Assembly: GCA_001460835.1 (NCBI GenBank)
Contig: CYKH01001464.1
Span: forward strand, 27,830-91,829
DNA: 64,000 bases
Reading direction: 5' to 3'
Source: Bodo saltans
Taxonomy: Eukaryota; Euglenozoa; Kinetoplastea; Eubodonida; Bodonidae
In this document: one piece after another, positions 6,846 through 64,000 of the stretch
Layout: the number at the start of each line of letters is the position of its first letter
Position numbering within the stretch: position 1 is the stretch's first letter
The notes under the pieces: generated by a model
The model's database searches: none
The model's input: only the letters and a program-made list of their open reading frames with translations
What the model was told of the DNA's origin: nothing
Position numbers and translations under genes: made by a program

Positions 6846-6936
6846 AGAGCATTTTTGTACGTAGAGTTTGTTTGACGGATCGCTTTGATTTCTTTGTGAG
6901 TTGTTTTTTTTCCTGTTCGGACCCCACCCCCCACTC

Positions 6937-6970
6937 TATATACCCAATCGGAAAATATATACCCGATCGG
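6937..6970. repeat. Short imperfect direct repeat in the intergenic spacer
   Basis: Two 15-base copies (6937-6951 and 6956-6970), TATATACCCRATCGG, differ at one base and sit 19 bases apart start to start in the spacer between two genes. They lie in the probable 3' UTR of the upstream gene. Possibly a UTR regulatory element or chance slippage; nothing identifies a function. Confidence 0.5.
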
Positions 6971-7141
6971 ATATAGCCTGTTTTTTTCCTGTGGTTTGAA
7001 TAAACACTGAACGCCACTTTCTTGTGCATGCAGTCTTTTTGTGCTGTTGCTTTGTTTCGATGTGCAGCTAGAACTACTTTGAAATCAACGATTCATTGTT
7101 CATAGATTTGTTTTCAACAAGATTTACTGGGAACCACTAAA

Positions 7142-39038: not shown

Positions 39039-41153
39039 ATGGAGGGAATGAACCGCCATATTGTGATCGACGGGCTGCCAACGAACATTGCTCCCGCTCG
39101 CCACGAAGTGTTCCGAAAGTTCTTCACCACCACAGTCGCAAAGAAGCTTGGCCATGAGAATTTTGTTGTGCATCTGACCATTGACGACGACGCATCAAGC
39201 GCAACCTCAGGTTTTGTGAATGGTGCCTTCTTGACATTTGTGAAGCCCAGCGATGCTGAGTTTGCACTCTCCGCCATGAACCGCTTTCCCCTCACGAAAT
39301 CTGAGATGCTCTCGACCTACCGGTGGTCAGCACTCGCCACTGCCAAAGAACCTGTTACCGAGTACGTTGCCCCAGAGCTCGCCGCTGAGACTGCTGCGGA
39401 CCTCGCTAACGCTATGATGCAGGACCCCGCAGCCCGCCCGATGTTCCTGACCAAATCTGGTCAGCATCTTGACATTGAGCTGTCTTGGTACGACAATGCC
39501 AAGCAGAAGGTGGACTTGCACAAAAAGCCAACCGCCGATCGCAACGACAGCCTTGGCCAGATGTGCGAGATGGACCGCCGTATGGGCCGTATGGCTCTCC
39601 CCGGCCTCATCTACGGCACCAACACAACCCCAAAGCCCCTTCCCATTTGGACCCCCCTCGGCTCCATGATGGTCACGCAGCACCTCACCGGACTGAAGTT
39701 CTGGGGTGGCGAAGACTTTAAGTGCCTCTTCGAGATTGTTGAGGAAAACGTGACAGCGTTCCTTATCTCTCCCCTGGAGAACTTCTTGATTGTTCGCAGT
39801 GACCGCGAGGTAGCCGTGTGGAATCTGAAGCAGTCAAGGAAACTGAAAGTGATTGCCGGCTTTAACCCTGACCAATGGCCCCTCGGCAAATTCAACGCTG
39901 ACGACTCTCTCGTTGCCTTCAACAAATCTGGCGACCTGCTGGTGTACGACACCAAGAATGACATGTCGCTTGTGCAAGCATCCATTGACACCCGTCATTC
40001 CTACACGTACCGCTTAGAAAACCTCGTAGATTTCGAATGGTCACCGTTCCACGCTTCCCACATTGCGCTTATCTTTAGTGGCGATCAGCACGTTGGCTGG
40101 AGTGTGTCCATCGAGGACATCGCTACCGACGACGAGCGCATCGCGTCAATGAACAACGCGATCCGCCGTAACTTCCTTGGTGCTGGCCAAGTGAATGTGT
40201 TGTGGCACCCTGAGGGCACGGGACTGGCGGCTAAAATCACCAAGTTCGACAAGGGCGGTGAAGTTTCGGCCGTGGAGTACTGTCTGTTTAGGATTTTCGC
40301 CAAGAGCATCACTGCCGATCATTTCAAGATTGAGAATATGTACTCAGCGGAGCGTTTTGCGTGGCAACCAGGCGGCAAGTACTTCGCCGTGCTGTTGCTG
40401 GACAAGGCGTCGATCAACGCCAAAACAGTCACTGGACCGAAGATGACCGTTCGATTCTACTCCGTTGATGGCAAGGGCCTCAAGACGTTAGGCTCCTTCC
40501 CCACAAGTGCAAATTCTCTTCACTGGGCACCCAAGGGAACCCGTCTTGTAGCTGCCAACTATGAGAAATCACTTTTTGAATTCTACGGTATCAATGACGC
40601 TGGTGTCGCCCAACAATTTGAGAAGTGCGAGCACCCCGCCGTCGGTGACACACAGTGGGACCCCTCTGGTCGTTTCTTCGCGTCGTGGAACACGTGCCTG
40701 CGTACTCCTGAAGGCTGCCGCTACCGTATCTTTGATATGAACGGTCATCGCATTCTGGAGAAGCGCGCTGAGAAATTCTCCCACTTCGCCTGGCGCCCAC
40801 TCGCCAAGCCTGTCCTTGACGCTGATGAGGTGAATGAGGTCAAGAAGAAGCTGAAGTCGATCATCGAAGAGTACGAGGCTGCCGATCAAGCTGTGGAAGA
40901 TGCCGCTGCTAAAGTGATCCGCGATAAGCAAGAGAAGGCGGAGAGGGAATACAAGACACGCATGGATGCGATCCACAGGCACCACGCCGAGAAGAAGTAC
41001 GCTGAGACGCGTGAGCAGCTCCGCGCCAAGGCCCCGATGACGATCCGCCAGAGGAAGTTCCTTGCGTCCATCCCAGAGGAGCAACGTATGACCACAGAAA
41101 TCGTAACGGAGAGCCGCGTCAAGGCCCGTGATGAGGTTAAGGGCCAAAAGTAG
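39039..41153 (+). CDS. EIF3B: Translation initiation factor 3 subunit B
   Basis: 704 residues from the first ATG after the splice signal, a usual length for the family. eIF3b is the scaffold of the eIF3 complex on the 40S subunit. Residues about 1-100 form an RRM-like domain (HIVIDGLPT ... GAFLTFVKPSDAEFAL). From about 200 a beta-propeller starts with WTPLGSMMVTQHLTGLKFWGG, matching the family's S-P-x-G-x-Y-L-x-x-x-H-x-x-G-x-x-x-W-G-G. Blades continue with FAWQPGGKYFAV, LHWAPKGTRLVAANY and TQWDPSGRFFASWNT, and the propeller closes with HFAWRPLAKP. The last 110 residues are a charged helix used in eIF3a/g/i contacts in other species. All parts are present and codon use is highly biased, as expected for an abundant factor. 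Confidence 0.93.
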   Translation: MEGMNRHIVIDGLPTNIAPARHEVFRKFFTTTVAKKLGHENFVVHLTIDDDASSATSGFVNGAFLTFVKPSDAEFALSAMNRFPLTKSEMLSTYRWSALATAKEPVTEYVAPELAAETAADLANAMMQDPAARPMFLTKSGQHLDIELSWYDNAKQKVDLHKKPTADRNDSLGQMCEMDRRMGRMALPGLIYGTNTTPKPLPIWTPLGSMMVTQHLTGLKFWGGEDFKCLFEIVEENVTAFLISPLENFLIVRSDREVAVWNLKQSRKLKVIAGFNPDQWPLGKFNADDSLVAFNKSGDLLVYDTKNDMSLVQASIDTRHSYTYRLENLVDFEWSPFHASHIALIFSGDQHVGWSVSIEDIATDDERIASMNNAIRRNFLGAGQVNVLWHPEGTGLAAKITKFDKGGEVSAVEYCLFRIFAKSITADHFKIENMYSAERFAWQPGGKYFAVLLLDKASINAKTVTGPKMTVRFYSVDGKGLKTLGSFPTSANSLHWAPKGTRLVAANYEKSLFEFYGINDAGVAQQFEKCEHPAVGDTQWDPSGRFFASWNTCLRTPEGCRYRIFDMNGHRILEKRAEKFSHFAWRPLAKPVLDADEVNEVKKKLKSIIEEYEAADQAVEDAAAKVIRDKQEKAEREYKTRMDAIHRHHAEKKYAETREQLRAKAPMTIRQRKFLASIPEEQRMTTEIVTESRVKARDEVKGQK

Positions 41154-41376
41154 TGTGGTGGTCTGGTTGTGGGTGTCGAGTAATGATCACAGTGTGTTGA
41201 AGGAGATCGGGCTAATAATCCGGAAACAAAATCAAACAAAACAATAAGGAAATGAAATTCAAATTCTTCAAGCGTGAAGGATTTTTTTAAAAAAAAACTG
41301 ATTTTGTTACTTCTCTTTTATCCGAGAATTGCATCTTGTCACTTTTTCCACCAGTATCATAGGTAGAAGTGAAATC

Positions 41377-42159
41377 ATGCGGTCGTTTTTGACGCGCGTT
41401 TCAACACAGCCAGCGGCGTTTTTGTTGTCGCTGGCCGCACCCCGGCGGCTCAGCTCAGGTAAAGCTGTCGACAACACGGATGTATCTGGCTCTGCATCGC
41501 CACCCACTACCACGGTGCCTCCCACACCACCAACTGAGCCAAGTAGCAGCACACCTGTAGCATCTTCTCACGGTATCAACGCTTCCGCAGCTGACGCGGA
41601 GCCAGCGAGATGGATCCAACCATCGACTGCCGAAACGCATCCTGATGGCATCGCCCCGATTCTCGACGAAAAGGGCCAGTACATTGTGTCTACTAAACAA
41701 TGGCCTACAGGAGACGTGGCGTATCGCACCCCTGAAGCGCCAGGGCACCTTGCGCCGCGATTTGGTTACAATGTTCTGCAAGTCAAGAAAGATGTGTCGT
41801 GGTGGCAGCACTACCATAAGTATCCGCGTTTTTCCATGGCGTACTTGAACATTCAGTTGATCTTCCTGTTGGGGATTGCGTGGCTGTCGGCGTATATCTC
41901 CATTGAGTACCGCAACATGACAGACGAAATGAAAACGCCTGGCGCGATGGTCGGAGAGCAACGAGGTCGTGGCGCTTCGAACAAAGGCACTCAAAAGATT
42001 TCCTTCACAAACGATGAAATGTCTGCACTCATTGGGGGAGCGCAACAAGACTGGATGGAGGGTAAGAGTGAGAAGAATTACGTTGGTTCCAAGGACTATC
42101 GTATGAAGCAAATCTCAAGACCGAAGGAGTTCTCTATGGAGGATTTCCGCAAGCGGTGA
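41377..42159 (+). CDS. Mitochondrial single-pass membrane protein, unknown
   Basis: 260 residues. The N-terminus (MRSFLTRVSTQPAAFLLSL, then RR near residue 26) is a good mitochondrial presequence: Arg, Ser, hydrophobic, no acids. Residues 30-85 are Pro/Thr/Ser-rich and disordered. Residues about 95-155 include Trp/Tyr/Pro-rich conserved-looking sequence (WWQHYHKYPRFSMAY), followed by one transmembrane segment at about 163-182 (IQLIFLLGIAWLSAYISI) and a polar 75-residue tail. The architecture is like an accessory subunit of a respiratory or ATP synthase complex in kinetoplastid mitochondria, which is inference. Family not recognised. The frame is open upstream to 41329, but 41377 gives the presequence-like start. 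Confidence 0.75.
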   Translation: MRSFLTRVSTQPAAFLLSLAAPRRLSSGKAVDNTDVSGSASPPTTTVPPTPPTEPSSSTPVASSHGINASAADAEPARWIQPSTAETHPDGIAPILDEKGQYIVSTKQWPTGDVAYRTPEAPGHLAPRFGYNVLQVKKDVSWWQHYHKYPRFSMAYLNIQLIFLLGIAWLSAYISIEYRNMTDEMKTPGAMVGEQRGRGASNKGTQKISFTNDEMSALIGGAQQDWMEGKSEKNYVGSKDYRMKQISRPKEFSMEDFRKR

Positions 42160-42220
42160 GACGTAATTAAGGGGCCTTCACAGATTCCATTGCGTCCCTG
42201 TCACACCATCAACTTTGTGT

Positions 42221-42243
42221 TTGACATTTTTGTTTAACATTAG
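42221..42243 (+). promoter_or_regulatory. Predicted spliced-leader acceptor for the carnitine acyltransferase gene
   Basis: A T-rich tract is followed by AG at 42242-42243, only two bases before the ATG at 42246. A second CT-rich tract (about 42262-42290) with AG at 42296-42297 lies between this ATG and the next in-frame ATG at 42330, so two alternative mRNAs are possible. Confidence 0.55.
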
Positions 42244-42245
42244 CG

Positions 42246-44522
42246 ATGCGTAACTACTCAATTCCCGTTTGCCTCTCCTCTCATTGTTCCATTGAAGAAA
42301 CTTTGTGTGTGCTAAGGACATCGTCTCTCATGTCTACGGTTCCAGAATGGGCCGACCTTCCTCCACGAGAGGCGAAGTCATTTCGACGAAAACGTCACCA
42401 ACAAAATATTCCATTGCTGCACAACGATGGCACCGTTATCAGCGCCTTCGGTAGAACATTCAGCGCACTTACAGCTGAAGAAAGAACTCTGTTGCACCAA
42501 GCTGCTTCATTACCGCGCGAACACCACCAAGCCAAGATCCCGCGCCTGCCCGTCCCGGCGCTGGCGGACACGTGCAAGCTGTACCTGTCGTCGCTTGAGG
42601 GCCTGGTGAACGCGGAGGAGTACGCGGCGACGCAGGAGCGGGTGCGCGAGCTGCTGGCGCCTGGCGGCGACGGGGAGCGACTGCAGCGGCTGCTTGAGGA
42701 GCGCGAGGCGCGGCAGGAGCAGCCGAGCTGGCTGGAGGAGTGGTGGGACGACGCGTACCTCGTTACGCGCGACCCGATCCCGATCAACGTGAACTACTTC
42801 TTCGGGTTCCAGCCGCACCCGGACCACGCGCGCTCGACGCAGGTGGGCCGCGCCGCGAGCCTGCTGCACGCGGCGCTCGACTTCTACGTGCAGGTGCGCG
42901 ACGGGACGCTGACGAACGACATGGAGCGCACGACGCCGCTATGCATGTCGCAGATGCGCCGCGTGTTCTGCGCGTCGCGTGTGCCTGGCGCGGAGCGCGA
43001 CACGATCGTGTCGTACAGCGCGGCGCCGCTGACGGCCGACGAGCGCGCGTCGAAGACGTGCCAGTACGTGGCGGCGTCGCCGGCGCACTGCATGGTGCTT
43101 GTGCGCAACCGCTACTACAAGCTGCGCGTGCTCGAAGGTACGGGCGTGCTGCCGGTGGAGCTGCTGGCGGCTGCTCTTGCGCGGATCGTCGACGCGGCGA
43201 CGAACGAGAAGGCGGCGCCCGGGCCGCCGGTGGGCGTGCTGACGACGATGCATCGCACGGAGTGGTTCGAGGCGCGCGCGCAGCTGCTGGAGCTCGGCAA
43301 CGAGGACGTGCTGCAGAGCCTGCAGTCCGCGATCCTTGTCGTGTGCCTCGACGGCATGGCGGTGAGCGACACGGCGGAGGCGGCGCGCCTGTTCCTGCAC
43401 GGGACCGGGACGAACCGCTGGTTCGACCGGCACAACCTGATCGTCGCGCGCAACGCGGCGGCGGGCATCAACTTCGAGCACAGCGTCGGCGACGGCGCAA
43501 CGACGCTACGCGTCGCGGACTACATGTACCGACAGGACGCGCGCCGCGTGCCGCTGGACGTGGCCGCGTGCGTGGCGCAGTACGGCGCCGGCGCGGCGGA
43601 GCTCGTGACGGAGCTGCAGTGGAGCCTCGACTCGCAGGTGGACCGCACGCTGAAGGACGCGTTCGACGGCTTCCTGGAGCTCATCGAGAGCAACGAGACG
43701 ACCGTGCTTCACTTCCGCCACTACGGCGGCAACATGATCAAGAGCGCGAAGATCTCGCCGGACGCGTACTTGCAGCTTGCCTTCCAGCTGACGTACTACC
43801 GGCTGTTCGGGCGCAACGACGCGACGTACGAGGCGGCGAGCACGCGCGCGTTCCTGCACGGCCGCACCGAGACAGTGCGCTCCGTCACGCGCGCCGCCGC
43901 GGATTTTTGCCGTTCTGCGTCGGACCCTTTGTTTTCCCGTCGTGTCGGATCTGTAATCCCTGATCAGCTTCAACTGCTCAAAAACGGCGCTCAGGCACAT
44001 GTGGACTACATGAAGTTCGCGAAAAATGGCACTGGAGTCGATCGTCATTTTTACGGGCTGCGCATGCTCGCTAAGTCCCATGGTAAACCAATGCCCTCCA
44101 TCTTCCTCGACCCCATTTTTGAGCGCAGTTGCCATTGGAACATGTCAACGTCACACTGCGGCTCCACCGCCCTTAACTTATTCGGCTTTGGACCAGTTGT
44201 TTCCGATGGGTTTGGTTTGGGGTACATGATCTTTAACAAAGAGATCAATGTTGTGATCACAAGCAAGTACACCCACCGACTGACGTCGAGTTCAATCTTC
44301 TCGCAGATGTTAGAGGGTTCTCTTCTGCAGATGCGGTGCATCCTGGAGAGCGCACCAGAGAATCGTCAGAAGGAAGACGGACGCCGCGTTCTGGAGTTCA
44401 CGCACCCTACTGCCTACAACGATTTTTCGTATGAGGCAACACGAGGGTTTACGTACCGAAGCACCAACCGACGCAGTCTTTATCAAAGCAATTCAGGGAC
44501 TGGGTCGGGTGTGATGTATTGA
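42246..44522 (+). CDS. Carnitine O-acyltransferase, CPT2-like
   Basis: 758 residues (730 from the alternative in-frame ATG at 42330). The family transfers acyl groups between CoA and carnitine. Closest pattern to CPT2: LPVPALADTCKLYLSSL, NRWFDRHNLIVARN, then NFEHSVGDG with catalytic His412 (CPT2: H-F-E-H-S-W-G-D-G), YRLFGRNDATYEAASTRAF, MSTSHCGS and FGPVVSDGFGLGY (CPT2: S-T-S-Q and F-G-P-V). The first 28 residues could be a targeting extension that is skipped when the second ATG is used. The stretch 42535-43902, covering most of the catalytic region, has almost only G/C at third codon positions, unlike both ends of the same gene. Fatty-acid oxidation in the mitochondrion is the likely role. 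Confidence 0.93.
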   Translation: MRNYSIPVCLSSHCSIEETLCVLRTSSLMSTVPEWADLPPREAKSFRRKRHQQNIPLLHNDGTVISAFGRTFSALTAEERTLLHQAASLPREHHQAKIPRLPVPALADTCKLYLSSLEGLVNAEEYAATQERVRELLAPGGDGERLQRLLEEREARQEQPSWLEEWWDDAYLVTRDPIPINVNYFFGFQPHPDHARSTQVGRAASLLHAALDFYVQVRDGTLTNDMERTTPLCMSQMRRVFCASRVPGAERDTIVSYSAAPLTADERASKTCQYVAASPAHCMVLVRNRYYKLRVLEGTGVLPVELLAAALARIVDAATNEKAAPGPPVGVLTTMHRTEWFEARAQLLELGNEDVLQSLQSAILVVCLDGMAVSDTAEAARLFLHGTGTNRWFDRHNLIVARNAAAGINFEHSVGDGATTLRVADYMYRQDARRVPLDVAACVAQYGAGAAELVTELQWSLDSQVDRTLKDAFDGFLELIESNETTVLHFRHYGGNMIKSAKISPDAYLQLAFQLTYYRLFGRNDATYEAASTRAFLHGRTETVRSVTRAAADFCRSASDPLFSRRVGSVIPDQLQLLKNGAQAHVDYMKFAKNGTGVDRHFYGLRMLAKSHGKPMPSIFLDPIFERSCHWNMSTSHCGSTALNLFGFGPVVSDGFGLGYMIFNKEINVVITSKYTHRLTSSSIFSQMLEGSLLQMRCILESAPENRQKEDGRRVLEFTHPTAYNDFSYEATRGFTYRSTNRRSLYQSNSGTGSGVMY
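42535..43902 (+). other. Extremely GC-rich segment within the carnitine acyltransferase gene
   Basis: About 1.37 kb with nearly every third codon position G or C, while the gene's first 290 and last 620 bases have the mixed codon use of the rest of the window. Both borders are abrupt and in frame: the left at about 42535 after the codons CAC CAC CAA GCC, the right at 43902/43903, where GCC GCC GCG changes to GAT TTT TGC CGT TCT. The protein homology runs through both borders without interruption, so the segment is a homologous replacement or a local base-composition shift, not an insertion. Confidence 0.85.
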
Positions 44523-45017
44523 AAGAGATGGTTGTTTGTGTTGCACAAGCAGCGAGAGCTTTTCTTACCAAGAGAAGACCCCTGCAAGAGAGGAGATGTG
44601 GATTGATTTTAGAGGCGCTTCGTATTTCGAACTTCTGGATTTTATTTTCTGCAAAATTTCCCCAGCCCTTCGAAGATTCTCATACCTCTGAGATCTTTTT
44701 TTTTCGTTTTCTTTTTTGCAATCGAGCACACACACACGACAGCGACACGAAATCACAAGTATCAAGAAGAGACGGAACCAATGACAGCAGGGAGAGAATC
44801 ACCACGACACTGAACGAATTTTACCTTTTCGATTTTTTTTCAATCAGGAGCGTTTGCTGCAAACTTTTTTGTGACAAATTTTGGATTCATGGATGGAAAT
44901 CAGTTGGCTTTGTAGCTGACCCCATTCTTGAATGTAAAGGGAATCTGAGGCGGTTGCTTTGTGGTGTTCGATTTGCAAGTACATCAAGGAGAAGGGGGAG
45001 AAGACTCACACGCGTCC
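44523..45017 (+). other. Intergenic spacer with two acceptor-type tracts and upstream ATGs
   Basis: T/C tracts at about 44695-44717 and 44822-44840 (AG at 44846-44847) are visible. If the second is used, the leader of the macro-domain gene is about 170 bases and holds out-of-frame or short ATGs (44889, 44893), which could lower translation. A short ACACACAC run lies at about 44727-44738. No other gene seen. Confidence 0.55.
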
Positions 45018-46076
45018 ATGTCTACATCTGGTGATAGTCGCCAAGACAGTAATGTCACAATTGAAAGCGATGAAGGTGCACCCACTTCCATGGGGTTGCG
45101 TGCAAAAACGTCAGCACCAACTGCAGTGGTGGAAAGGACTAACACTTTGTTGCAACGCCAGCAGCTAGATGGAGGCATGGGAGCACGAGCACATACGGAG
45201 ACCGCACTCGACAACGTTCCACCGTACCATCCAGAGCAGATCAACTACGACCTGCATCTCCCGGCAGAAGACGACGGGGGATCTGGAAGACGCGCAAAGG
45301 ATGAGGCACAAGTTGACCGTTATCGACTTCGGACCCTCAAATTACCCTTTGATGACCCAAAGGAACAGCAGATGTTTGACATGTCTTTCGAGCAGTGGCG
45401 TTCGATCGACAGATCCTCCTTTGGGTGGCGCTGCCGAGTCCCACCACCCATAAAAGAAATCGAAGACATTGAACCTTGGGCAAAGGACGACATTCACATT
45501 TTAGACAAAATCGCTCTCGTGCGTTGCGGCGTAACGCAGCTTGCACTTGATGCCATTGTGAACGCTGCAAACGAAGAATGTCTTGGTGGCGGTGGAGTGG
45601 ACGGTGCCATTCACTCGGCCGCTGGGGGTCTCCTCAGGAGGGAGTGCAGCACCTTCAATGGTTGCCGCACGGGCCACACACGTATGACCAAGGGGTACCA
45701 CCTGCCCGCTAAATTTATCCTGCATACAGTTGGGCCGATGGGAGAAAGGCCCACGCTGCTGCGGAGCTGTTATCGATCGTGTTTGGAGCTTGCCAAGCAC
45801 CATAGTTTGCGGACGGTAGGCTTTTGCTGCATCAGCACAGGAATATTTGGATATCCACTAAGGGCAGCCACAGAGGTTGCCCTGTGGGAGGCCTTTTCCT
45901 TCTTGAAGCGAAATAGAGATCACTTTGACATGTTAGTGTTTGCGTGCTTTACGGAGCCCGAGTACGATGTGTACGCCAAGTCTATCGATGACATCTACAG
46001 GCGTGTCATGATCGAGGATACGAAAGCGCTAGCAGCAGCAGCAGCGATACCAACAAGTGTGGCGGAGTCGGAGTGA
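45018..46076 (+). CDS. Macro-domain protein (GDAP2/MacroD-like)
   Basis: 352 residues from the first ATG (the frame is open back to 44961). Residues 1-100 are polar and probably disordered. Residues about 130-165 (SFGWRCRVPPPI...) precede the macro domain in a way similar to GDAP2. The macro domain spans about 160-325: DAIVNAANEECLGGGGVDGAIH at about 178-199 carries the ADP-ribose-binding Asn pair (N182, N185) and the Gly-rich catalytic loop with Asp. GCRTGHTRMTKGYHLPAKFILHTVGP follows, and GFCCISTGIFGYP forms the second phosphate loop. Such domains bind or remove ADP-ribose from proteins or hydrolyse O-acetyl-ADP-ribose. Key residues look intact, so hydrolase activity is plausible. The Sec14 (CRAL-TRIO) domain of animal GDAP2 is absent. 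Confidence 0.92.
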   Translation: MSTSGDSRQDSNVTIESDEGAPTSMGLRAKTSAPTAVVERTNTLLQRQQLDGGMGARAHTETALDNVPPYHPEQINYDLHLPAEDDGGSGRRAKDEAQVDRYRLRTLKLPFDDPKEQQMFDMSFEQWRSIDRSSFGWRCRVPPPIKEIEDIEPWAKDDIHILDKIALVRCGVTQLALDAIVNAANEECLGGGGVDGAIHSAAGGLLRRECSTFNGCRTGHTRMTKGYHLPAKFILHTVGPMGERPTLLRSCYRSCLELAKHHSLRTVGFCCISTGIFGYPLRAATEVALWEAFSFLKRNRDHFDMLVFACFTEPEYDVYAKSIDDIYRRVMIEDTKALAAAAAIPTSVAESE

Positions 46077-46297: not shown

Positions 46298-49200
46298 ATG
46301 GCAGTCATCGCATTCAACACACGGATGCGGTTTGTTTTCTTTGTTTTTGTGTTATTATCTTCTCTGCAGTCCTGCACATCATTAGTTAGCAGCTCAAGAG
46401 GTACGACGCGAGACACGCGATCCATTCCTCGCTCCACGCGACCTCGTGACACTACCGAGCAGCGCGTGATGAATGAATTAGCAACACCACCGCAGTCATC
46501 ATCAAGAGACATGCAGTGGTATTATTCTTGCTGGAATACATCAGAGCGTCGAATTATTTTAGAACGCTCGCTGATCCTTCTTCGTGGCGGAAACTTCAGC
46601 AACTCCAACAGTTTAGGGAGTTGGTGTGAGAATTCAGCAACCACAGGTTCTACTTCTTCGATCATCGATTCGTTTTCAAATGGGGCTAATACCGCGCTTC
46701 GACGACCACGCGTTCGCTATTTTATGTTACCAAGCAGCCCGATTCACACATGTCTTCATACTGGCATGTTAGTTCAGACGATGCAGCGCAACAATAAGTA
46801 TGTGTGTGCTGCGACTGATGTCGCCAATGATGCTGCCGCCGCCTCATTTCTGACAAATGTGTTGCCCCGAGTTGTGCATTGGATTCAGAGAAGTCTATTG
46901 ATTCCAGCAGTGGAGCTGAAACCCAACAGCACCACGACCGGGGAGCGCACCCACCCAGTGAAACCAGACAACGACTTTGGTATCTGTGAAGGGCAAATTG
47001 GTCCTTACATTCCATTGTCTCATGATGGTCGTACAAGTGGCACCAAAGGGCCCGCCAACCCACACGACAGGAGATACGTGTATCCGTCCGTGGTCACCTC
47101 GTCAAGCGGAGCTGACGACACAACATACAGCGTACTGCCCAACACCACGATCCATCGCTCCTCACGGACCGCTTCCCGTGGCACCTATCACGCCATCGAC
47201 GGCGACGTGGTCTTGTACATCACCATGATGTTTTCCTACTTCTACTGGGATGCAAACCCCTGTCAGTTTCATCCAATTACTGGCCGCCCAACAGTGATTC
47301 ATCTCAATCTCGATCCTGGCGTGCTGAACCTTGCCATTGTCCCAACAGGCACCTCTAAGACGGTTTGGGCGGAGCTTCTTTCGCGGTATATTTTGCGTGA
47401 TGTCGTGCAAGCTCTTGCGTTGAAGAACTTCTTCTTAGATCTTAACCCAACGAGATACACTCGTCCGCTTGTGTACAACAACGTGTCATCATCCGCACCA
47501 CTCGATCGAGTGCAGTTGCATCAGGACGAAGTCTTTACGACATTTCGTTCTCCTGAGGGGTACGATTACAACGCTCTTCTTCGAGAGCCGCTGTTGTCGA
47601 TTACAGCAGCGCATTTTGCCTGCAATAGCACCGTTGGTGCGGCCCTTGAGAGCATCAATGACGTGCTGTACACCACAGTCAATCAGAATCTTGCTGGCCG
47701 TCTCTTTACATTTGATCTGTTTACGTACGACCAGCTCGACGTCATCATGAGCGATGTGATGTACGGAATGATGCAGAGCAACGGCTTTTGGGACGTCGAT
47801 TGGACAACTCCTGTCCGGGAGACGAACCTATTCGGGCGGCATGCAGGTTGCACGTTCTCAACAAAGCTCTGCAATGAAACGTTTCCTGGGCGTTTGCTTC
47901 CCTTAGGAGGAACTTGGGGGCTTTCCACTAAGCTAAACGGCACGACGCGACGCACCGTTATCGTCAATGTCTCGACCTCCGCTTCCTTTAGCAACATCGA
48001 TGGCACAGTGAATGAATCAGCATTCGACGTATGGACAGCAGCGTCGGTCTTGTCCAACCACTCATCCCTTCTGCCAACACCATTTTGCTTTCTCGATGAC
48101 GATACCACTCTTAACACTCTTATGTGCCACCCCCTGCGAAGAGGCGTTGGATCTTGCAATGTGGGAAACTACACTGGAAGCCTTCCACCGGCGCTGCGGT
48201 ATTTTCCTGGCGTGCCGAACATGGGCGGCGTGTATGATAAACTCCTGTACTGCCCCATTCCTGATAAAAACTTTGTGGACTGTGCCACCGTCATCACAAA
48301 CCTCTACGGTGACATTGCTTCCTCACCGTACAGTGACTTCTATTGCATCGACCAAGTTGTTCTGAAGCCGTACGTTGTGCAGTGGCCGACTGGCAATACG
48401 ACGCGAAACGTGTGGAAGCGAGTTGGATCGGGTTGCTTCCGCATCACCGAATGCAACCCAACAACACGTACGTTTTCAGTGCGACTGCCCGTTGTCGGGA
48501 GTGGAAACCTCACTGTCTCGTGGCCAGCGGTCATTGAATGCGGCGGTCATGTATCGCAGCAGTTGTTTCCTGCCAACAACCTCACGTACCATTGCCCACC
48601 ATACGACTCTGTCTGCACATCATTTTATCAAAAGAACCCCCTGCTGCTTCCCCGTGACACGCCTATCTTAGCTGGGGACACGGACGCATCGATGTTGCCC
48701 TCGATGACCCCTCAACGCTTTACCTCGTTAGATGTCAATGTCGTGTTGCCCAATTGGACTCTAGCATCCCCACCGTGGTGGCAAGCATCATCTGTTGTGA
48801 ATGCGACCATGAGCATCCAGGCGAATGGTCTTGCAGCTGGGTGGTCGCTGGAAGCCACAGCGAAGAGTAATGCGATAATGTCCTCCACTGTGTTTGTCCC
48901 GCTGTCCATTCAGTTTTCTTTGGCGTCATCAGGAGCTGCTCCCTTTGGTGGCCTCCTCGTTGTGACAACAGAGTGTGGCTTTCCGCTTAGTTGTGCTCCA
49001 GTGAATGCTTCAAGAAGCAACTTCTCGTTGGACGAAGATTTCGTCAACCTGCAATGTTGGAATCAGTCGACTACTCCTTCATGCGATGCTAGCGAATATG
49101 TTCCTGGGCTTGCCACAATGCCCGACCATTGCTCCGCGTCGTCACCAAACCAATGGGTATTTTTTGTGGATGGGCCAGTGGTCGCCAACACGATGTACGT

Positions 49201-52200
49201 CACTGAAACGGTGCGCTGCAGCTACACAATGCAGAACGATGACAGTTCTTCCGATTATGGCGACCCAGGGGAATACTTGGATGTGTCGTTCTACGCATTG
49301 CAGCCGGCATCGTTGACGTTCAACAGTTCATCTGGTCTTTACCAGATGAACAACGCAACGCTGCAACGGAATCAATCGGAGCTCCTTGCAGCGATTCGAA
49401 CCACGCAGGAGTGGTTATCGCCAGCGGCGCAGCCATACTGTGGCAATCCACTTGATGTGCCCGCACAATCACTCAGCAGCAGCAACGCCACATTCTCGTT
49501 GCAGCTGGTTGCCTCTGCAGCACACTTTAACGCTGTGTCCGATGACTTGTCGCCGTTTCTCCCCTCACAGCACGCTGCCCAGAATGTGACGACCCCCACG
49601 TCGTGGGGTGACTTCAGTGAAGTGCTGCATCAGCTATGGAACGGCTCCTCCGGTGCCTGGCAGATTCCTCGAACCTCCGCGTCCGTCGTATCACTTGCTG
49701 TGGAAGATCACGGAATCATCACTCCCAATACAACTGTGACCATTGTCGGTATCCCGATTGTGCCCAGTGTCTCTGTCATTGCGTTAAGTCTCTCTGCAAC
49801 TGTGACACCGCAAGACTTGACAGCGTCTCCCTGGCCATCGTCCTACGGACTTTCTTACGCTGGGCCGGTGACCCCCTGGTGGACAGTATCACCGGTGAAT
49901 AGCAGTCTATTGCTCATGCAGGCAAATCTCTTGAATGGCAGTGGACTTGTGTGCAACACCTCCGCTAACATCCTCCCATCGCCCATCTCTTCCGTGACCA
50001 CTGCTGAGCGTGAGATGTTCGCGTCTGCTGCACCGTGTGATTCGGTGGTGCGCATTCAAGTGACATTCTCTGGCTGCTCAGGATTGCAGGATCGTTGGAC
50101 AACGATGGAAGAGGCAGTCTTCACCGATAACATTATTTCATCACGTGATGCGTGTGCAGGCGCCGGTGCTCAATTGCTCAGCAGACGCGGTCGTGAGCTA
50201 AAGTGGTCCGCGAGCCAGTTTCCCACTGTGATCATCTCGCTCGACATCAACACAACATTGAACGTTTCCCAGCAGCAGTGTTCCTTCGTTGGCGTGCAAC
50301 TGAATACGTTAGTGCCTGTGCTTCTCGGAGGGACGAACTCTACGTCGCGTTTGCAGCGCCACCTTGTCACCATTCAGCAGCGCTTTGTCAATGGTTCGTG
50401 GGCTCCCAGTCAATCTGCCCTCACCGCATCGATGGTTCTCTTTCCCACTGCCACCCAACAAAGTGACTACGCACTGCAACTTGTTTACACTGCGTCATGC
50501 TTGTCTTGCAGCACGTCGCTGTATTATGAGTTCGTGTTGCCTTCTACCTTCCAGAAGTCTCCTCAACGAATCCGTGTCAATGACACTTTTGTGCTGCGTC
50601 TTGATGATACTCAGTATCGTAGGGACCAGATGATCCGCCATCCTTGGTGGAACAGCAGCGACACTGTACTCCTAGGTTGCAGTGGGTTGGGCTTGACTGT
50701 TCAACTTTGGATGGCTCAGAGGATTGTGGTCCGCGTGACACAGTTGCAAGGAAGCCATTTAGACGCTTGCACGCCAAGGTTAGGAAAGGTAGGCGTGCTG
50801 ACAAGTGGATACGTGACTGTGTCCAGCTCCCCCACCGCAGCGTCTGCAGTGGCGGAGTTTCACGTGTCGCTGAATCGCACGACTGTCATCTACCGCACCT
50901 CGGCGAGCGACGCATCTGTAAGCATTGCTTGTGCCCGATGCAATTTCCGTGGTCTCTGTGTGGGCTCCACATCATGCACTTGTTTTGTTGGCTACGGTGG
51001 CCCAGCTTGCAATGTTTGTGCATCGCAGAATATGAGCGCTGCCCCAAATGGCCAGTGTGCGTATTATTGTGACGATAGCAGTCCTGCTGCACCAGTGCCA
51101 CCCACAATCTCCCCACGTTACAAACAGTGGGTGGCAGAATGCATTCAGGTGGGTGGTTACTTGGACCCCCAGTCCCAATGCCGCTGTGTATGCAACGGTA
51201 CGTTCTGCTTCTATCCGACGGCAACACGATCGCAGTCTGTCACGTTAACACTCATGGAGACACCAACAGTTGGTCCTGACACCACATCGTCCCCATCACC
51301 GAGTGGCTCCTCGAGCCCAACGCCTCCGGCATCAACGACTCCTTCCGGAAGGCCGAGCACCACTGCGTCTCCCTCTGGGACTGGGACGACATCGCCAAAT
51401 GGCCCAACGCCAACAACTACCGTCTCCCCTTGGCGCACGTCCACCGCCTCACCGGGTTCGCATACTGCGACCAACCAACCCGCTTCAACTGACACTGCTT
51501 CGCCGACAGGTCCGATTCACACGGCGACGCCAGCGAGCAGTGGAACAGCATCTTCCTCCCCTGACGGCACTGCGTCGACCTCCACAACAACGTCGCCTGC
51601 CGGCAGTCACACCGGCACCCCCGCCACTGTTGTGCCCACCTCATCCATCGGTGCGTCATCGACAACGTCTGTGCCTGGTGGCTCCGTGTCCTCGACTCCC
51701 TCGCCTTTGTCCACAGGATCCCTTCCACCTACTCAGTCCCCCAGTGGTTGGACAGCATCCCCGACGACAGGCACGCAGACACCATGGGTCTCAGGGTCGC
51801 CTGCGCCTTCGGATAGCACGACTTTAGGGCCAACGCCCACAGGGGGGGACTGGACGTTGACGCCGTCCCCAATAAGTACGCCCTCGACTGAGGCGCCCAG
51901 CACCAATACGAACGTCCCCTCGCCCACCGGAACACCAAACGGCACTACTACACCAGCACCGACGCCACCGGCGCCAACGAACCATTCGTGGACGACAAGA
52001 GTGTCCGCATCACAGGAATGGACGGTAACAGCGACAAAGGGACTCTACTCACAGACAAAGACATTCTCAACCTCAGGAGAGCTGTACCCGGCGACGCCTA
52101 TTGTTCCCTTCTTGTCAAGTGCGTTTGTGTTTTTCTCATCGGCCTCCAGCAACGCGAACCTCGCATCGCTATTTCGAGGAGACTCTAATGCACCGACTGC

Positions 52201-54844
52201 CCTAGTTGTGTCCGTCACCTCAGCTTTGCTCGAAGAGTACTACACAAACGCGGCTACTGTTCCGGTGAAGCAACTTCTGGACGAAGTTGACTCTCCTCTC
52301 GCGTTGAGGCGTGTCACCACAACGCCGGTAACGTTCGCGATGGAAGTCGGCGGACTGTCGTACCGAAGGGAACTTTTGGCCTCGGCATTGGTGCCCATAG
52401 CGAGGTATGAAGATCCCAAATGTGCGTTGCGGTACGCTGCATCCGTTCCTCTCGACTCGTGGAACCCCTTGTGGAATGAGACGAACAGTACTGCTGTCAG
52501 TACCTCATCGTCAAACGCAACAGACCAAGAAGACAATACTTCTTGGTTTGCCGTACCGACAGCTGATGCGAAGTATGTGTGCGATTTCTTTGTGTACGGC
52601 CCAGTGTTTCGTTCATGCTTTAACCGCATTCAGTTTTCAGGCAGTGTGAACATGTGGATGGATGAGAAAACCCTTATCGTGTACATGGTGGTCACGGCAG
52701 ATCAGCTCGTGGCCGCCGCACCGCCGGATGAAAGCAATGATGTGAGGCTTCTTGAGGTCGTGCAAAAGGCCCACCAGATTTTCTGGTGCATTCTTGCGGT
52801 GATTATGCTGCTGACGTCGCCTCATCTTCTGCTTGATGCGCAGCTCTCCGCGCTGCTTGCCGCGATCGCGATGCGCTCACCAGGTGCGTGCGTGGATGGT
52901 GCAGCGACGAACATCTTCTCTTACTTGTTGAAGCCGTATCCCATCATTGCGGTGGTGCTTCCCTTTTCATGGAATGGGGAAGTGAGTACATTGAAGCAGC
53001 ACTTAAACAACTTCTGGGCTCATGCTGCGGGCCTTGTGTTCTTCTTCGTTATTGCTGTGATGGCAAAGGTGTTATCAGCCCTTCGTGGATGGGGCGATGG
53101 AAGTGACCTTCGAGGAGAGGCGCCAAGCGTGCTACGAAAGGTGTTTAGGATGGAGGGGTGGGTGTTCTTCAGTCAGTTGGTCTCTGCCCTTCTTGCGACG
53201 GGCATTATTTTCTCCGGGGTCAGCGGGCTGCGTGCGGTGGAGGCAGGAGCAGAAACAGACGGCCCATCATCGATAGCCTCTCTTGTGTTGATGCCGATTG
53301 CACTTCTTCTTGTGTGTGTCATGTGCGCCACGCTCATGTACTTTGCGGATAACGCTATTCCGTCCCTCGACCCGATGGCCCCCAAATATTCAAGCATTGA
53401 CAGCCTTCTCCGTATGCGGGGGGATGAACGCTCATCCAAGGCTCTTCGCGCCGAATTGAACAGAGCAGCACCAAAGACGTTGATGTGGTCAAAACGGCTT
53501 GCAGTGTGCGTATCTGTGTGGTTTCCTCCAAGGTGGCTCCTTCCGAGGGGATACTGGACCTTTCCTATTCGCAAACAGTGCTTCCCCAGAACACAAGCTA
53601 CACTCCATCAGCAAAGGCGAGACGATCGCATGCGAGAAATCCTTACTCGCTGGACCCCACTGATTCACGTCTTTCGCAACATTGTTGTCGCTGCCCTGCT
53701 CGCATTATCTGGGGCTGAATCACTCTGTTGGAGCCCATCAGCAACGACCGTTTTTGCACCACCATGGATGCAGAGCGGGTACATCTCCTACCGCATAGGG
53801 TTTGGCATCGCTGCAGCAGTGGTCTGTTGCTGGGTTCTTTTTGTGATCATCGTGAGACCATTTCGCAGCGTCAACTTAAGCCTGCTTAGTGTCTGGTTGA
53901 GTATGACGTTCGTGGTCGTCGGCGCAGTGATGATCAGCTATGGAACCTCACCCCGTGGTGGGGTTTATTCGTTGTCGTCCGTAGGGACATCCACAGTGCC
54001 TGACGACACTCCTGAGGGCATAAGCTCGCTCCTGCTTGCCACAGATGCGGTGGCCACTATTGTCACCATGTTGTTGGTGCTGGAGCACTATGTTCTCGAC
54101 GAGTACATCGAGGAAGTGGATCGCACCGCTTCATCGCAACTGCAGCACATCGATGCACTTGAGGCATGCTTTTTGGAAGTCCCCCACAGCCGTGGAATCG
54201 ACATGAGTCTGAATGCCGCCGCAGTGGCGGAAGGTGACGCTCTCGAGATGTCCAATATTTCCGTCGGAGGGCTGGGGTACAAGTCCCCCACAGTACCAGC
54301 GCCTATCGCTCCGTTTTCACCTCTTGACGCACTGCGGAAAATGGTTGAGGAGGATGCCCCCCGCACTGGTGGCACCAAAGCAAAAGGGAAGAACTCGAAG
54401 AAAAAGCACAGAGGGGGAAAGCGACCTGCAGTGTTGCGTCGTGAGGGCAGCGATCTCAGCGACGACGACGCGTGGAGTCATTCGGGGAGCTCCAGCGGCA
54501 GCAGTATTTCATTAGATGCCAAAGCGAAACCGTCGCCAGCTCCTCCCGCTGCACCGAAAAGCAGCGCAACAGCACCAGTCGCTCGGTTTAACCCTCTGGA
54601 TGATTCTTCATCAAACAATAAGAAGCGCGGCGGTAAGAACAAAACAGAGACAAGCGCAAAGGCAAAACCAACTGCCACAACATCGTTGTCACGACGAAGT
54701 AACAACAGGTCGGAGTTCGACTTTGACGCGTTGGAAGCGATGCTATTCAAGAGCGATCCGCTGCCTCCTCATGTTGGGGAAAGCACAGTTGTGGCGCCCC
54801 CGCCATTGGATCGTGAAGCAGCTGCAAATTTGTGGAAAAGGTAA
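46298..54844 (+). CDS. Giant surface protein with inactive leishmanolysin-like domain, EGF-like motif, mucin-like stalk and multi-pass membrane module
   Basis: 2,848 residues. Signal peptide 1-29 (basic, then FVFFVFVLLSSLQSC). Residues about 330-780 follow the leishmanolysin (GP63, peptidase family M8) pattern: GVLNLAIVPTG, then NLFGRHAGCTFSTKLC (GP63: W-G-R-N-A-G-C-x-F), LLYCPI, FYCIDQ, CNPTTRTFSVRL and LTYHCPPYDSVC. The HExxH zinc site is replaced by R367-D-V-V-Q371, followed by ALAL where GP63 has ALGF, so it is not a peptidase. Many N-glycosylation sites follow. A Cys-rich EGF-like motif lies at about 1545-1580, and a Ser/Thr/Pro stalk at about 1653-1898. About eight hydrophobic segments lie at 2157-2602, and a Lys/Ser-rich cytoplasmic tail of about 240 residues ends the protein. 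Likely a plasma-membrane adhesin or receptor in phagotrophic feeding (inference). Confidence 0.88.
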   Translation: MAVIAFNTRMRFVFFVFVLLSSLQSCTSLVSSSRGTTRDTRSIPRSTRPRDTTEQRVMNELATPPQSSSRDMQWYYSCWNTSERRIILERSLILLRGGNFSNSNSLGSWCENSATTGSTSSIIDSFSNGANTALRRPRVRYFMLPSSPIHTCLHTGMLVQTMQRNNKYVCAATDVANDAAAASFLTNVLPRVVHWIQRSLLIPAVELKPNSTTTGERTHPVKPDNDFGICEGQIGPYIPLSHDGRTSGTKGPANPHDRRYVYPSVVTSSSGADDTTYSVLPNTTIHRSSRTASRGTYHAIDGDVVLYITMMFSYFYWDANPCQFHPITGRPTVIHLNLDPGVLNLAIVPTGTSKTVWAELLSRYILRDVVQALALKNFFLDLNPTRYTRPLVYNNVSSSAPLDRVQLHQDEVFTTFRSPEGYDYNALLREPLLSITAAHFACNSTVGAALESINDVLYTTVNQNLAGRLFTFDLFTYDQLDVIMSDVMYGMMQSNGFWDVDWTTPVRETNLFGRHAGCTFSTKLCNETFPGRLLPLGGTWGLSTKLNGTTRRTVIVNVSTSASFSNIDGTVNESAFDVWTAASVLSNHSSLLPTPFCFLDDDTTLNTLMCHPLRRGVGSCNVGNYTGSLPPALRYFPGVPNMGGVYDKLLYCPIPDKNFVDCATVITNLYGDIASSPYSDFYCIDQVVLKPYVVQWPTGNTTRNVWKRVGSGCFRITECNPTTRTFSVRLPVVGSGNLTVSWPAVIECGGHVSQQLFPANNLTYHCPPYDSVCTSFYQKNPLLLPRDTPILAGDTDASMLPSMTPQRFTSLDVNVVLPNWTLASPPWWQASSVVNATMSIQANGLAAGWSLEATAKSNAIMSSTVFVPLSIQFSLASSGAAPFGGLLVVTTECGFPLSCAPVNASRSNFSLDEDFVNLQCWNQSTTPSCDASEYVPGLATMPDHCSASSPNQWVFFVDGPVVANTMYVTETVRCSYTMQNDDSSSDYGDPGEYLDVSFYALQPASLTFNSSSGLYQMNNATLQRNQSELLAAIRTTQEWLSPAAQPYCGNPLDVPAQSLSSSNATFSLQLVASAAHFNAVSDDLSPFLPSQHAAQNVTTPTSWGDFSEVLHQLWNGSSGAWQIPRTSASVVSLAVEDHGIITPNTTVTIVGIPIVPSVSVIALSLSATVTPQDLTASPWPSSYGLSYAGPVTPWWTVSPVNSSLLLMQANLLNGSGLVCNTSANILPSPISSVTTAEREMFASAAPCDSVVRIQVTFSGCSGLQDRWTTMEEAVFTDNIISSRDACAGAGAQLLSRRGRELKWSASQFPTVIISLDINTTLNVSQQQCSFVGVQLNTLVPVLLGGTNSTSRLQRHLVTIQQRFVNGSWAPSQSALTASMVLFPTATQQSDYALQLVYTASCLSCSTSLYYEFVLPSTFQKSPQRIRVNDTFVLRLDDTQYRRDQMIRHPWWNSSDTVLLGCSGLGLTVQLWMAQRIVVRVTQLQGSHLDACTPRLGKVGVLTSGYVTVSSSPTAASAVAEFHVSLNRTTVIYRTSASDASVSIACARCNFRGLCVGSTSCTCFVGYGGPACNVCASQNMSAAPNGQCAYYCDDSSPAAPVPPTISPRYKQWVAECIQVGGYLDPQSQCRCVCNGTFCFYPTATRSQSVTLTLMETPTVGPDTTSSPSPSGSSSPTPPASTTPSGRPSTTASPSGTGTTSPNGPTPTTTVSPWRTSTASPGSHTATNQPASTDTASPTGPIHTATPASSGTASSSPDGTASTSTTTSPAGSHTGTPATVVPTSSIGASSTTSVPGGSVSSTPSPLSTGSLPPTQSPSGWTASPTTGTQTPWVSGSPAPSDSTTLGPTPTGGDWTLTPSPISTPSTEAPSTNTNVPSPTGTPNGTTTPAPTPPAPTNHSWTTRVSASQEWTVTATKGLYSQTKTFSTSGELYPATPIVPFLSSAFVFFSSASSNANLASLFRGDSNAPTALVVSVTSALLEEYYTNAATVPVKQLLDEVDSPLALRRVTTTPVTFAMEVGGLSYRRELLASALVPIARYEDPKCALRYAASVPLDSWNPLWNETNSTAVSTSSSNATDQEDNTSWFAVPTADAKYVCDFFVYGPVFRSCFNRIQFSGSVNMWMDEKTLIVYMVVTADQLVAAAPPDESNDVRLLEVVQKAHQIFWCILAVIMLLTSPHLLLDAQLSALLAAIAMRSPGACVDGAATNIFSYLLKPYPIIAVVLPFSWNGEVSTLKQHLNNFWAHAAGLVFFFVIAVMAKVLSALRGWGDGSDLRGEAPSVLRKVFRMEGWVFFSQLVSALLATGIIFSGVSGLRAVEAGAETDGPSSIASLVLMPIALLLVCVMCATLMYFADNAIPSLDPMAPKYSSIDSLLRMRGDERSSKALRAELNRAAPKTLMWSKRLAVCVSVWFPPRWLLPRGYWTFPIRKQCFPRTQATLHQQRRDDRMREILTRWTPLIHVFRNIVVAALLALSGAESLCWSPSATTVFAPPWMQSGYISYRIGFGIAAAVVCCWVLFVIIVRPFRSVNLSLLSVWLSMTFVVVGAVMISYGTSPRGGVYSLSSVGTSTVPDDTPEGISSLLLATDAVATIVTMLLVLEHYVLDEYIEEVDRTASSQLQHIDALEACFLEVPHSRGIDMSLNAAAVAEGDALEMSNISVGGLGYKSPTVPAPIAPFSPLDALRKMVEEDAPRTGGTKAKGKNSKKKHRGGKRPAVLRREGSDLSDDDAWSHSGSSSGSSISLDAKAKPSPAPPAAPKSSATAPVARFNPLDDSSSNNKKRGGKNKTETSAKAKPTATTSLSRRSNNRSEFDFDALEAMLFKSDPLPPHVGESTVVAPPPLDREAAANLWKR
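51255..51990 (+). repeat. Mucin-like Thr/Ser/Pro-rich stalk coding region
   Basis: About 245 codons almost entirely Thr, Ser, Pro and Gly, with recurrent units such as SPTG, TPSPS and TASPSG. This is a degenerate low-complexity repeat, expected to be heavily O-glycosylated and extended. The DNA is C-rich, and long shadow frames on both strands arise from it. Confidence 0.8.
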
Positions 54845-63655: not shown

Positions 63656-64000
63656 AGGACTCGTTGACGTTAGAGTTTGAGTCGTTTTGTCCAGTGGACC
63701 GTAACATGATGGACTACGAGGGGTGGCTTCAGTGCCTGGCCTCACAATCGACTCTTATGTTCCCTCGATTTGCAGCAAACATTTCTCGGCCACTACTGAT
63801 GGACATCATGTGCACGTCATTGTTAGTGCCGTGGCTTCACGCAGATGCCAGTCGCGGAGATCTTTCGAGCCCCATCCCCCATAGTTCCGATGCTGCAGGC
63901 AGCCGGTCTGTTGTGGTTCGATCCATTTATTCGCAGAGACGCCAGTCGCTGTGTTTTGACATCAAGGAGCTTGCGGAGGAGTGCTTCGGTGCGCTCCTGG
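63235..64000 (+). repeat. Near-identical tandem duplication, period 404 bases
   Basis: Copy 1 is 63235-63599 and copy 2 is 63639-64000, continuing past the window. The copies differ at only a few bases (for example C/A in the GTCC(C/A)GTGG stretch, T/C in GACAT(T/C)ATG, G/T in TCCAT(G/T)TATTC) and by one 3-base deletion of ACG in copy 2 near 63867. About 39 bases unique to the junction lie between them. The substitutions and the codon-sized indel suggest a real recent duplication, or two alleles or paralogues joined in assembly. Confidence 0.92.

What the first reader, a model, noticed from the sequence alone, without database searches (positions are those of the whole stretch)
42535..43902. 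Sharply bounded ultra-GC-rich patch inside a carnitine acyltransferase gene
Within one continuous CPT2-like reading frame, about 456 codons use almost only G or C at the third position, while codons on both sides have mixed usage like every other gene in the window. Both borders fall inside coding sequence, in frame, with family motifs running across them. Possible causes are homologous replacement by a copy from a GC-rich relative (trypanosomatid-like codon use), strong GC-biased gene conversion between paralogues, or an assembly chimera with another organism's gene.
Basis: seen in the sequence. Interest (0 to 1): 0.82.

Follow-up and report, generated by a model that had tools for sequence, protein, structure and literature searches.

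The report
Foreign core inside a carnitine enzyme
In a kinetoplastid-like protist, the middle of one ordinary metabolic enzyme gene appears to have been swapped, in frame, for the same stretch from a relative with very GC-rich DNA, leaving a working-looking patchwork enzyme; an assembly error is less likely but not excluded.

Summary
In the frame 42246-44522 (a full-length carnitine/choline acyltransferase), GC3 is 0.43 before, 0.95 within and 0.58 after a block best bounded at 42531 and 43901. The block has its own ancestry: it is 89% and 83% identical to metagenome proteins P0002 and P0003 but at most 59% to the 54 other proteins aligned, while the C-terminal flank is 50-53% identical to those two and 64% to P0004 and P0006. 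Identity borders (codons 93/555) match GC3 borders (95/552). Patch codons are foreign in style (GCG/ACG/CCG), unlike this genome's GC-richest sampled genes. None of 96 sampled long ORFs or 15 other window genes has such a patch. Best reading: recent in-frame replacement of the enzyme core by the homologous stretch of a GC-rich relative of P0002. An assembly chimera is not excluded: no reads or relatives' DNA were available, and this assembly has odd joins elsewhere. P0002 and P0003 also part near the same 3' edge, hinting at repeated exchange or at fast-evolving C-termini.

The parts
42246..42530 (+). N-terminal flank of the gene, host-like codon use (GC3 0.43). A second in-frame ATG lies at codon 29.
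   Evidence: the 730-aa protein P0001 starts there
42531..43901 (+). GC3-saturated patch (457 codons, GC3 0.952), 89% / 83% identical in protein to P0002 / P0003; holds the catalytic-type histidine
42525..42533 (+). 5' border: protein-identity changepoint at codon 93, GC3 changepoint at codon 95, at the outer edge of the alignable HQ..IPRLPVP block
43902..43910 (+). 3' border: GC3 changepoint at codon 552, identity changepoint with P0002 at codon 555, at the outer edge of the conserved HGRTETVRS.TRAAADFC block
43902..44522 (+). C-terminal flank, host-like codon use (GC3 0.58), ordinary kinetoplastid-type C-terminus; closest by identity to P0004 and P0006 (64%)
43479..43481 (+). His412, aligned with the EH of the human carnitine acetyltransferase chain 1nm8 (catalytic role recalled); lies in the patch
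   Evidence: alignment; coordinates
44145..44153 (+). Ser-Thr-Ser motif, residues 634-636 (active-site role recalled); lies in the C-terminal flank, so the active site mixes two ancestries
   Evidence: alignment; coordinates

Best explanation
This is a mosaic gene. A native, kinetoplastid-type carnitine/choline acyltransferase gene had its central 1.37 kb replaced, in frame, by the homologous stretch of a gene related to P0002 and P0003 that had long evolved in GC-rich DNA. The proposed route is segmental gene conversion or homologous recombination with foreign or divergent DNA. The tract appears to run to the edges of the alignable homology: on the 5' side it stops where the variable N-terminal tail begins, on the 3' side where a variable, indel-bearing stretch begins. 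Shown on the assembled sequence: separate ancestry of patch and C flank, coincident borders, foreign codon style, intact frame and motifs. Inferred: the donor's genome is GC-rich, the event is recent (the patch has kept 95% GC3 in a genome whose profiled genes average about 57%), the molecular route, and that the product is active.
For: Identity to P0002 is 407 of 457 in the patch and 68 of 135 in the C flank; to P0003 379 of 456 and 72 of 136. Among 903 pairs of 43 homologues, query-P0002 and query-P0003 rank 1st and 2nd for patch-minus-C-flank identity (0.387, 0.302); the largest value outside the query/P0002/P0003 trio is 0.153. Borders by identity with P0002 (93/555) and by GC3 (95/552) agree within three codons. 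Patch tree of 23 rows: query+P0002 98/95, with P0003 100/100; holding P0002+P0003 together is rejected (AU p 0.009), and so is query+P0004 (p 0.0001). In the C-flank tree of the same rows P0002+P0003 group (99/94) with the query outside that pair. P0002-P0003 also share an N flank (27 of 47) that the query lacks (11 of 47 and 13 of 48). A search of the database with the patch alone (290 hits, best 120 listed) again shows only P0002 and P0003 above 58%. The amino-acid GC index, patch minus C flank, is 0.203 in the query; 40 other homologues have mean 0, sd 0.052, max 0.107. Four-fold codons ending in G among those ending in G or C: 0.69 in the patch against 0.40 in the genome sample's GC3-richest ORFs; Ala GCG:GCC 51:8 against 147:228, Fisher p 4e-12. 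Precedent: T. brucei mosaic VSG conversions join donors down to 73.2% nucleotide identity, with under 4 bp of identity at 49 of 496 borders (PMC3708902, passages).
Against: No reads were available, so the borders are not proven in DNA molecules. The DNA of P0002 and P0003 could not be fetched, so their GC content is only inferred from amino acids, and that test is inconclusive for their C flanks. The C-flank AU tests reject neither query+P0002 (p 0.12) nor query+P0004 (p 0.09), and P0002 and P0003 sit on long branches there. In the 43-row C-flank tree the query is sister to P0002+P0003 (99/85), so donor and recipient may be close kin. Ranks 4 to 10 of the 903 pairs all involve P0002 or P0003, so their C flanks are unusually divergent from everything and part of the excess is theirs; P0002-P0003 itself ranks third (0.260), which a single event in this genome does not explain. 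A drop in identity at the 5' edge is seen in control pairs too, so only codon use and the missing P0002/P0003-type tail mark that border.
Confidence: 0.7

Rival explanations
1. Assembly chimera: the contig joins the flanks of this organism's gene to the core of another organism's gene (or another haplotype's) from the same sample.
For: Every contig whose length I saw is at least 10 kb, which looks like a size-filtered, possibly metagenomic assembly (inference). The assembly has other odd joins: for 3 of 9 T or A runs of 9 or more inside sampled ORFs, a 30-base stretch starting 3 bases after the run repeats upstream sequence exactly. No independent record of these junctions was seen: the protein cluster P0001 has 1 member. 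No reads could be examined.
Against: Two switches would be needed, both in frame and at homologous positions, within a 91.8 kb contig. GC3 changes within a few codons, leaving little shared sequence for a k-mer based switch between host-like and GC3-95% DNA (inference). No duplication, long homopolymer or N marks either border: the longest T or A run in the gene is 5, no direct 18-base repeat lies within 41001-46000, and the window holds no N. No GC-rich contaminant contig appears among the 24 sampled stretches (23 contigs) with readable bases, GC 0.46-0.56; a 25th read only N.
Confidence: 0.17
2. Gene conversion from a paralogue in the same genome (a P0002-type copy) that is now lost or missing from the assembly.
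For: The C-flank tree of 43 rows puts the query next to P0002/P0003 (99/85), as for paralogues of one clade. About 15% of the sampled bases read N, so a copy could be hidden.
Against: DNA search with the gene and protein search with P0002 find no second copy; the other protein matches are 30-35% identical. A paralogue with GC3 0.95 would itself be foreign in style here.
Confidence: 0.08
3. Local GC-biased gene conversion or selection for host-preferred codons raised GC3 in place.
For: The patch holds conserved core sequence, and some sampled genes have raised GC3 (a glutathione peroxidase-like ORF, best 40-codon window 0.93).
Against: The sample's GC3-richest genes favour C-ending codons, the patch G-ending ones, save Gly and Arg. 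The patch protein is closest to different relatives than the C flank. The GC-type amino-acid make-up of the patch is shared by P0002 and P0003.
Confidence: 0.03
4. The patch is constrained by a second, overlapping reading frame.
For: Another + frame is open for 401 codons in the patch.
Against: Synonymous reshuffling with the patch's own codons reaches that length in 5.8% of 500 trials, with no correction for five alternative frames, and it would not explain the different ancestry of the patch.
Confidence: 0.02

Closest known systems
Subgenic lateral transfer in eukaryotic enolase (Keeling and Palmer 2001; not read, seen only as described in a passage of PMC1665464 and in reference lists)
   Same: Part of a housekeeping metabolic gene taken from another lineage and recombined with the resident copy, giving a mosaic gene.
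   Different: There, as described in that passage, insertions moved between alveolates and land plants by fine-scale recombination; here one block of 457 codons with a sharp codon-usage signature, in a kinetoplastid-like genome.
Mosaic VSG genes of Trypanosoma brucei made by segmental gene conversion (PMC3708902, passages)
   Same: In-frame replacement of a segment inside a reading frame in a kinetoplastid; borders there need little perfect identity.
   Different: VSG donors are an archive in the same genome and the process serves antigen change; here a metabolic enzyme, and no donor copy was found in the assembly.
Kinetoplastid carnitine/choline O-acetyltransferases (T. cruzi, T. brucei, Neobodo designis proteins)
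   Same: Full-length PF00755 domain; aligned STS region; an ordinary C-terminus.
   Different: The core is 83-89% like P0002/P0003 and only 52-59% like P0004 and the Neobodo and trypanosome rows in the table.

Membership tests
Carnitine/choline acyltransferase family (PF00755) | Full-length domain match above the curated cut-off | tested here: met
   589.8 bits against a cut-off of 22.3, profile positions 1-573 of 574
Carnitine/choline acyltransferase family (PF00755) | Catalytic-type histidine and Ser-Thr-Ser motif in place (roles recalled) | tested here: met
   His412 and STS 634-636 in the alignment with 1nm8
Carnitine/choline acyltransferase family (PF00755) | Acyltransferase activity | not testable with these tools
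   needs an assay
Mosaic gene by subgenic transfer | Different segments of one reading frame have different nearest relatives | tested here: met
   patch nearest P0002/P0003, C flank nearest P0004/P0006 by identity; patch tree rejects P0002+P0003 as sisters
Mosaic gene by subgenic transfer | Statistically rejected common tree in both segments | tested here: inconclusive
   patch AU p 0.009 against the flank pairing; C flank AU p 0.12 against the patch pairing, with long branches
Mosaic gene by subgenic transfer | Compositional break at the same borders | tested here: met
   codons 95/552 against 93/555
Mosaic gene by subgenic transfer | Donor lineage identified and shown to be GC-rich | not testable with these tools
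   only proteins of P0002 and P0003 are held; scans of metagenome contigs were capped at 0
Mosaic gene by subgenic transfer | Junctions supported by sequencing reads | not testable with these tools
   no reads available
VSG-type segmental gene conversion | Donor copy present in the same genome | tested here: not met
   no second copy by DNA or protein search; about 15% of sampled bases read N, so absence is weak

The most novel reading that the evidence does not exclude
The acyltransferase core is a recurrently exchanged cassette. In three genes (this one, P0002, P0003) the same stretch is 80-89% identical while the three C-terminal flanks are only 50-54% identical to each other, and the drop falls near the same 3' edge. 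Repeated conversion would keep the core exchangeable while the flanks drift beyond recombination, so that a catalytic core spreads between lineages of free-living kinetoplastids independently of the rest of the gene.
Probability: 0.2. Interest if true: 0.78.

Novelty: new member of a known kind. Interest (0 to 1): 0.52.

Why it matters
If the junctions hold up in reads, this is a clear case of a eukaryotic nuclear enzyme gene rebuilt by taking only its core from another lineage, recent enough to keep the donor's codon signature. That makes tract borders, homology needs and loss of the foreign codon signature measurable. It also shows a simple way to find such events (sharp in-frame GC3 steps) that whole-gene trees would miss or misplace.

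Tried and rejected
Host-optimal codons: disfavoured, because the GC3-richest sampled ORFs prefer C-ending codons. Overlapping gene: not supported. A virus or prokaryote as source: scans of viral contigs and genome contigs with the patch protein gave 3 and 28 pattern matches, none a relative by tblastn; such scans find close relatives only. A plasmid DNA search gave no match. RNA element: no Rfam family at gathering level in the window. Origin of the P0002 C flank: a search with residues 515-688 found 4 proteins, P0002 itself, P0003 (53%), P0031 (44%) and P0132 (46%), which does not name a source. Other patches: the ORF in L033 with a 0.97 60-codon window looks on inspection like an Ala/Ser-rich stretch read past a likely frameshift, and L022 is a short ORF with generally high GC3; neither is a comparable patch. 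Papers: the searches gave listings only, save passages from PMC1920508, PMC1665464 and PMC3708902; in these listings I saw no report of a GC-rich patch inside a kinetoplastid acyltransferase, which is weak evidence of absence. Rows: 61 sequences were aligned (the query in place of P0001, P0002-P0057, and 4 paralogue ORFs). The pair ranking and the large trees used 43 of them; P0041, P0044, P0045, P0047, P0048-P0057 and the 4 paralogues were left out. The AU tests used 23 rows, the query and P0002-P0023. I ran no structure prediction.

Full report
What was reported and what is there. The window lies in a 91.8 kb contig of a 29.3 Mb, 934-contig genome. The nearest relatives of the acyltransferase are kinetoplastid and unnamed metagenome proteins, and each listed minus-strand ORF of 150 codons or more overlaps a plus-strand one, as in one-directional kinetoplastid gene arrays; so I take the organism to be a kinetoplastid, probably a free-living bodonid (inference). 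The gene at 42246-44522 is one open frame of 758 codons with a full-length PF00755 match. Its third-position GC jumps from 0.43 to 0.952 and back to 0.578; the best two borders are codons 95 and 552, i.e. 42531-43901, with a gain of 101 log-likelihood units over a uniform gene.

How unusual it is. The 15 other window genes profiled have GC3 0.51-0.66 and no 100-codon window above 0.78. In 25 stretches from the same genome (249 kb, about 211 kb not N) none of 96 main ORFs of 200 or more codons has a 200-codon window above 0.79. The sample is under 1% of the genome, so further patches could exist.

Separate ancestry. Against P0002 the protein is 407 of 457 identical in the patch but 11 of 47 in the N flank and 68 of 135 in the C flank; against P0003 379 of 456, 13 of 48 and 72 of 136. 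The C flank is closest by identity to P0004 and P0006 (64%), which are only 59% identical in the patch. Fitting changepoints to identity alone gives codons 93/555 with P0002 and 93/552 with P0003. A drop near codon 93 is also seen in control pairs, because the N-terminal tail is variable in the whole family; the 3' drop is not, the three control pairs standing at 70-81% identity after their second changepoint. Of 903 pairs of homologues the three pairs among query, P0002 and P0003 are the top three for patch-minus-C-flank identity (0.387, 0.302, 0.260; next 0.153; mean of the pairs outside the trio -0.040, sd 0.049). Ranks 4 to 10 all involve P0002 or P0003, so the C flanks of those two are unusually divergent in their own right. 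For P0002 against P0003 the best fit is a fall to 20% identity at codons 557-592 and 64% after that, but the first changepoint is poorly bounded (85-558).

Trees. In the patch, query and P0002 are sisters (98/95) with P0003 next (100/100); forcing P0002+P0003 is rejected (AU p 0.009), and forcing query+P0004 is rejected (p 0.0001). In the C flank of the same 23 rows P0002+P0003 group (99/94) with the query outside; forcing query+P0002 costs 10.6 log units but is not rejected (p 0.12), and forcing query+P0004 is not rejected either (p 0.09). P0002 and P0003 are long branches there; with either one left out, P0004 is still the query's nearest row by path. In the 43-row C-flank tree the query is sister to P0002+P0003 (99/85) and these three sit by P0004 (95/76). 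So donor and recipient are probably members of one clade of related genes, and the C flanks of P0002/P0003 evolve fast.

Foreign style. In four-fold codons the patch has G/(G+C) 0.69; the GC3-richest sampled ORFs (GC3 over 0.65, 7781 codons) have 0.40. Ala, Thr, Pro and Leu each differ strongly (Fisher p 4e-12 to 5e-5), Ser and Val more weakly (p 0.004 and 0.01), Gly and Arg not at all. The amino-acid make-up of the patch is also shifted toward GC-rich codons (index 0.118), equally in P0002 (0.109) and P0003 (0.121), while the query's C flank is at -0.084; the difference, 0.203, exceeds that of all 40 other homologues in the comparison (max 0.107) and of P0002 (0.128) and P0003 (0.075). For P0002 and P0003 themselves the contrast is weak, so whether their genes are GC-rich throughout is open.

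Mechanism. The simplest account is one recent segmental replacement. Recent, because the core keeps 95% GC3 in a genome whose profiled genes average about 57%, while 11% amino-acid difference from P0002 implies that the lineages have been apart long enough for synonymous sites to change (inference). Segmental and homology-guided, because the frame is kept and both borders lie at the outer edges of alignable homology. In T. brucei, mosaic VSG conversions used donors of at least 73.2% nucleotide identity, and 49 of 496 borders had under 4 bp of perfect identity (PMC3708902, passages); such machinery would tolerate this kind of event, though its presence in this organism was not tested. The result puts His412 (patch) and the STS motif at 634-636 (flank) of two ancestries into one active site (roles recalled). 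The borders do not match the enzyme's two structural domains as I recall them, so this does not look like domain shuffling.

What stays open. No reads were available. The assembly has local repeats beside T runs inside ORFs (3 of 9 in-ORF runs of 9 or more T or A in the sample; no such run lies in an ORF of the window), a warning about joins or a real oddity of the genome, but nothing of that kind lies at the patch borders. No second copy was found, though about 15% of the sampled bases read N. That P0002 and P0003 also part company near the same 3' edge is not explained by one event in this genome; either their C-termini evolve unusually fast or the core is exchanged repeatedly.

Noticed in passing
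L020 about 6170-6272; L013 5859-6107; L026 about 2824-2891 (genome G000): Inside ORFs, a run of 10-13 T is followed by a near-exact repeat of sequence just upstream; 3 of 9 in-ORF T or A runs sampled show this. Either haplotype mis-joins in the assembly or a real duplication process.
   Followed up: partly
window 63235-63947: A tandem near-duplication with an offset of about 404 bases and scattered differences.
   Followed up: no
L013 about 5449-6045 and 6104-7309 (contig C120:60448-62308; also L005, L007): Another carnitine acyltransferase gene whose match is split over two pieces in different frames, with an internal repeat and a run of T between them; the contig reads N further on.
   Followed up: no
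P0002 and P0003 C-termini: Both share an inserted stretch (YLA..HP.L.H.NR) and lack the usual C-terminal FTHPTAY..F tail.
   Followed up: partly
window 46298-54844: A 2848-codon ORF with no Pfam match at E 0.001; GC reaches 0.638 at 51501-52000.
   Followed up: no
L022 384-1022: A short ORF resembling a glutathione peroxidase (name recalled from its look, not searched) with a GC3-rich body (best 40-codon window 0.93) and a lower-GC3 N-terminal part.
   Followed up: no
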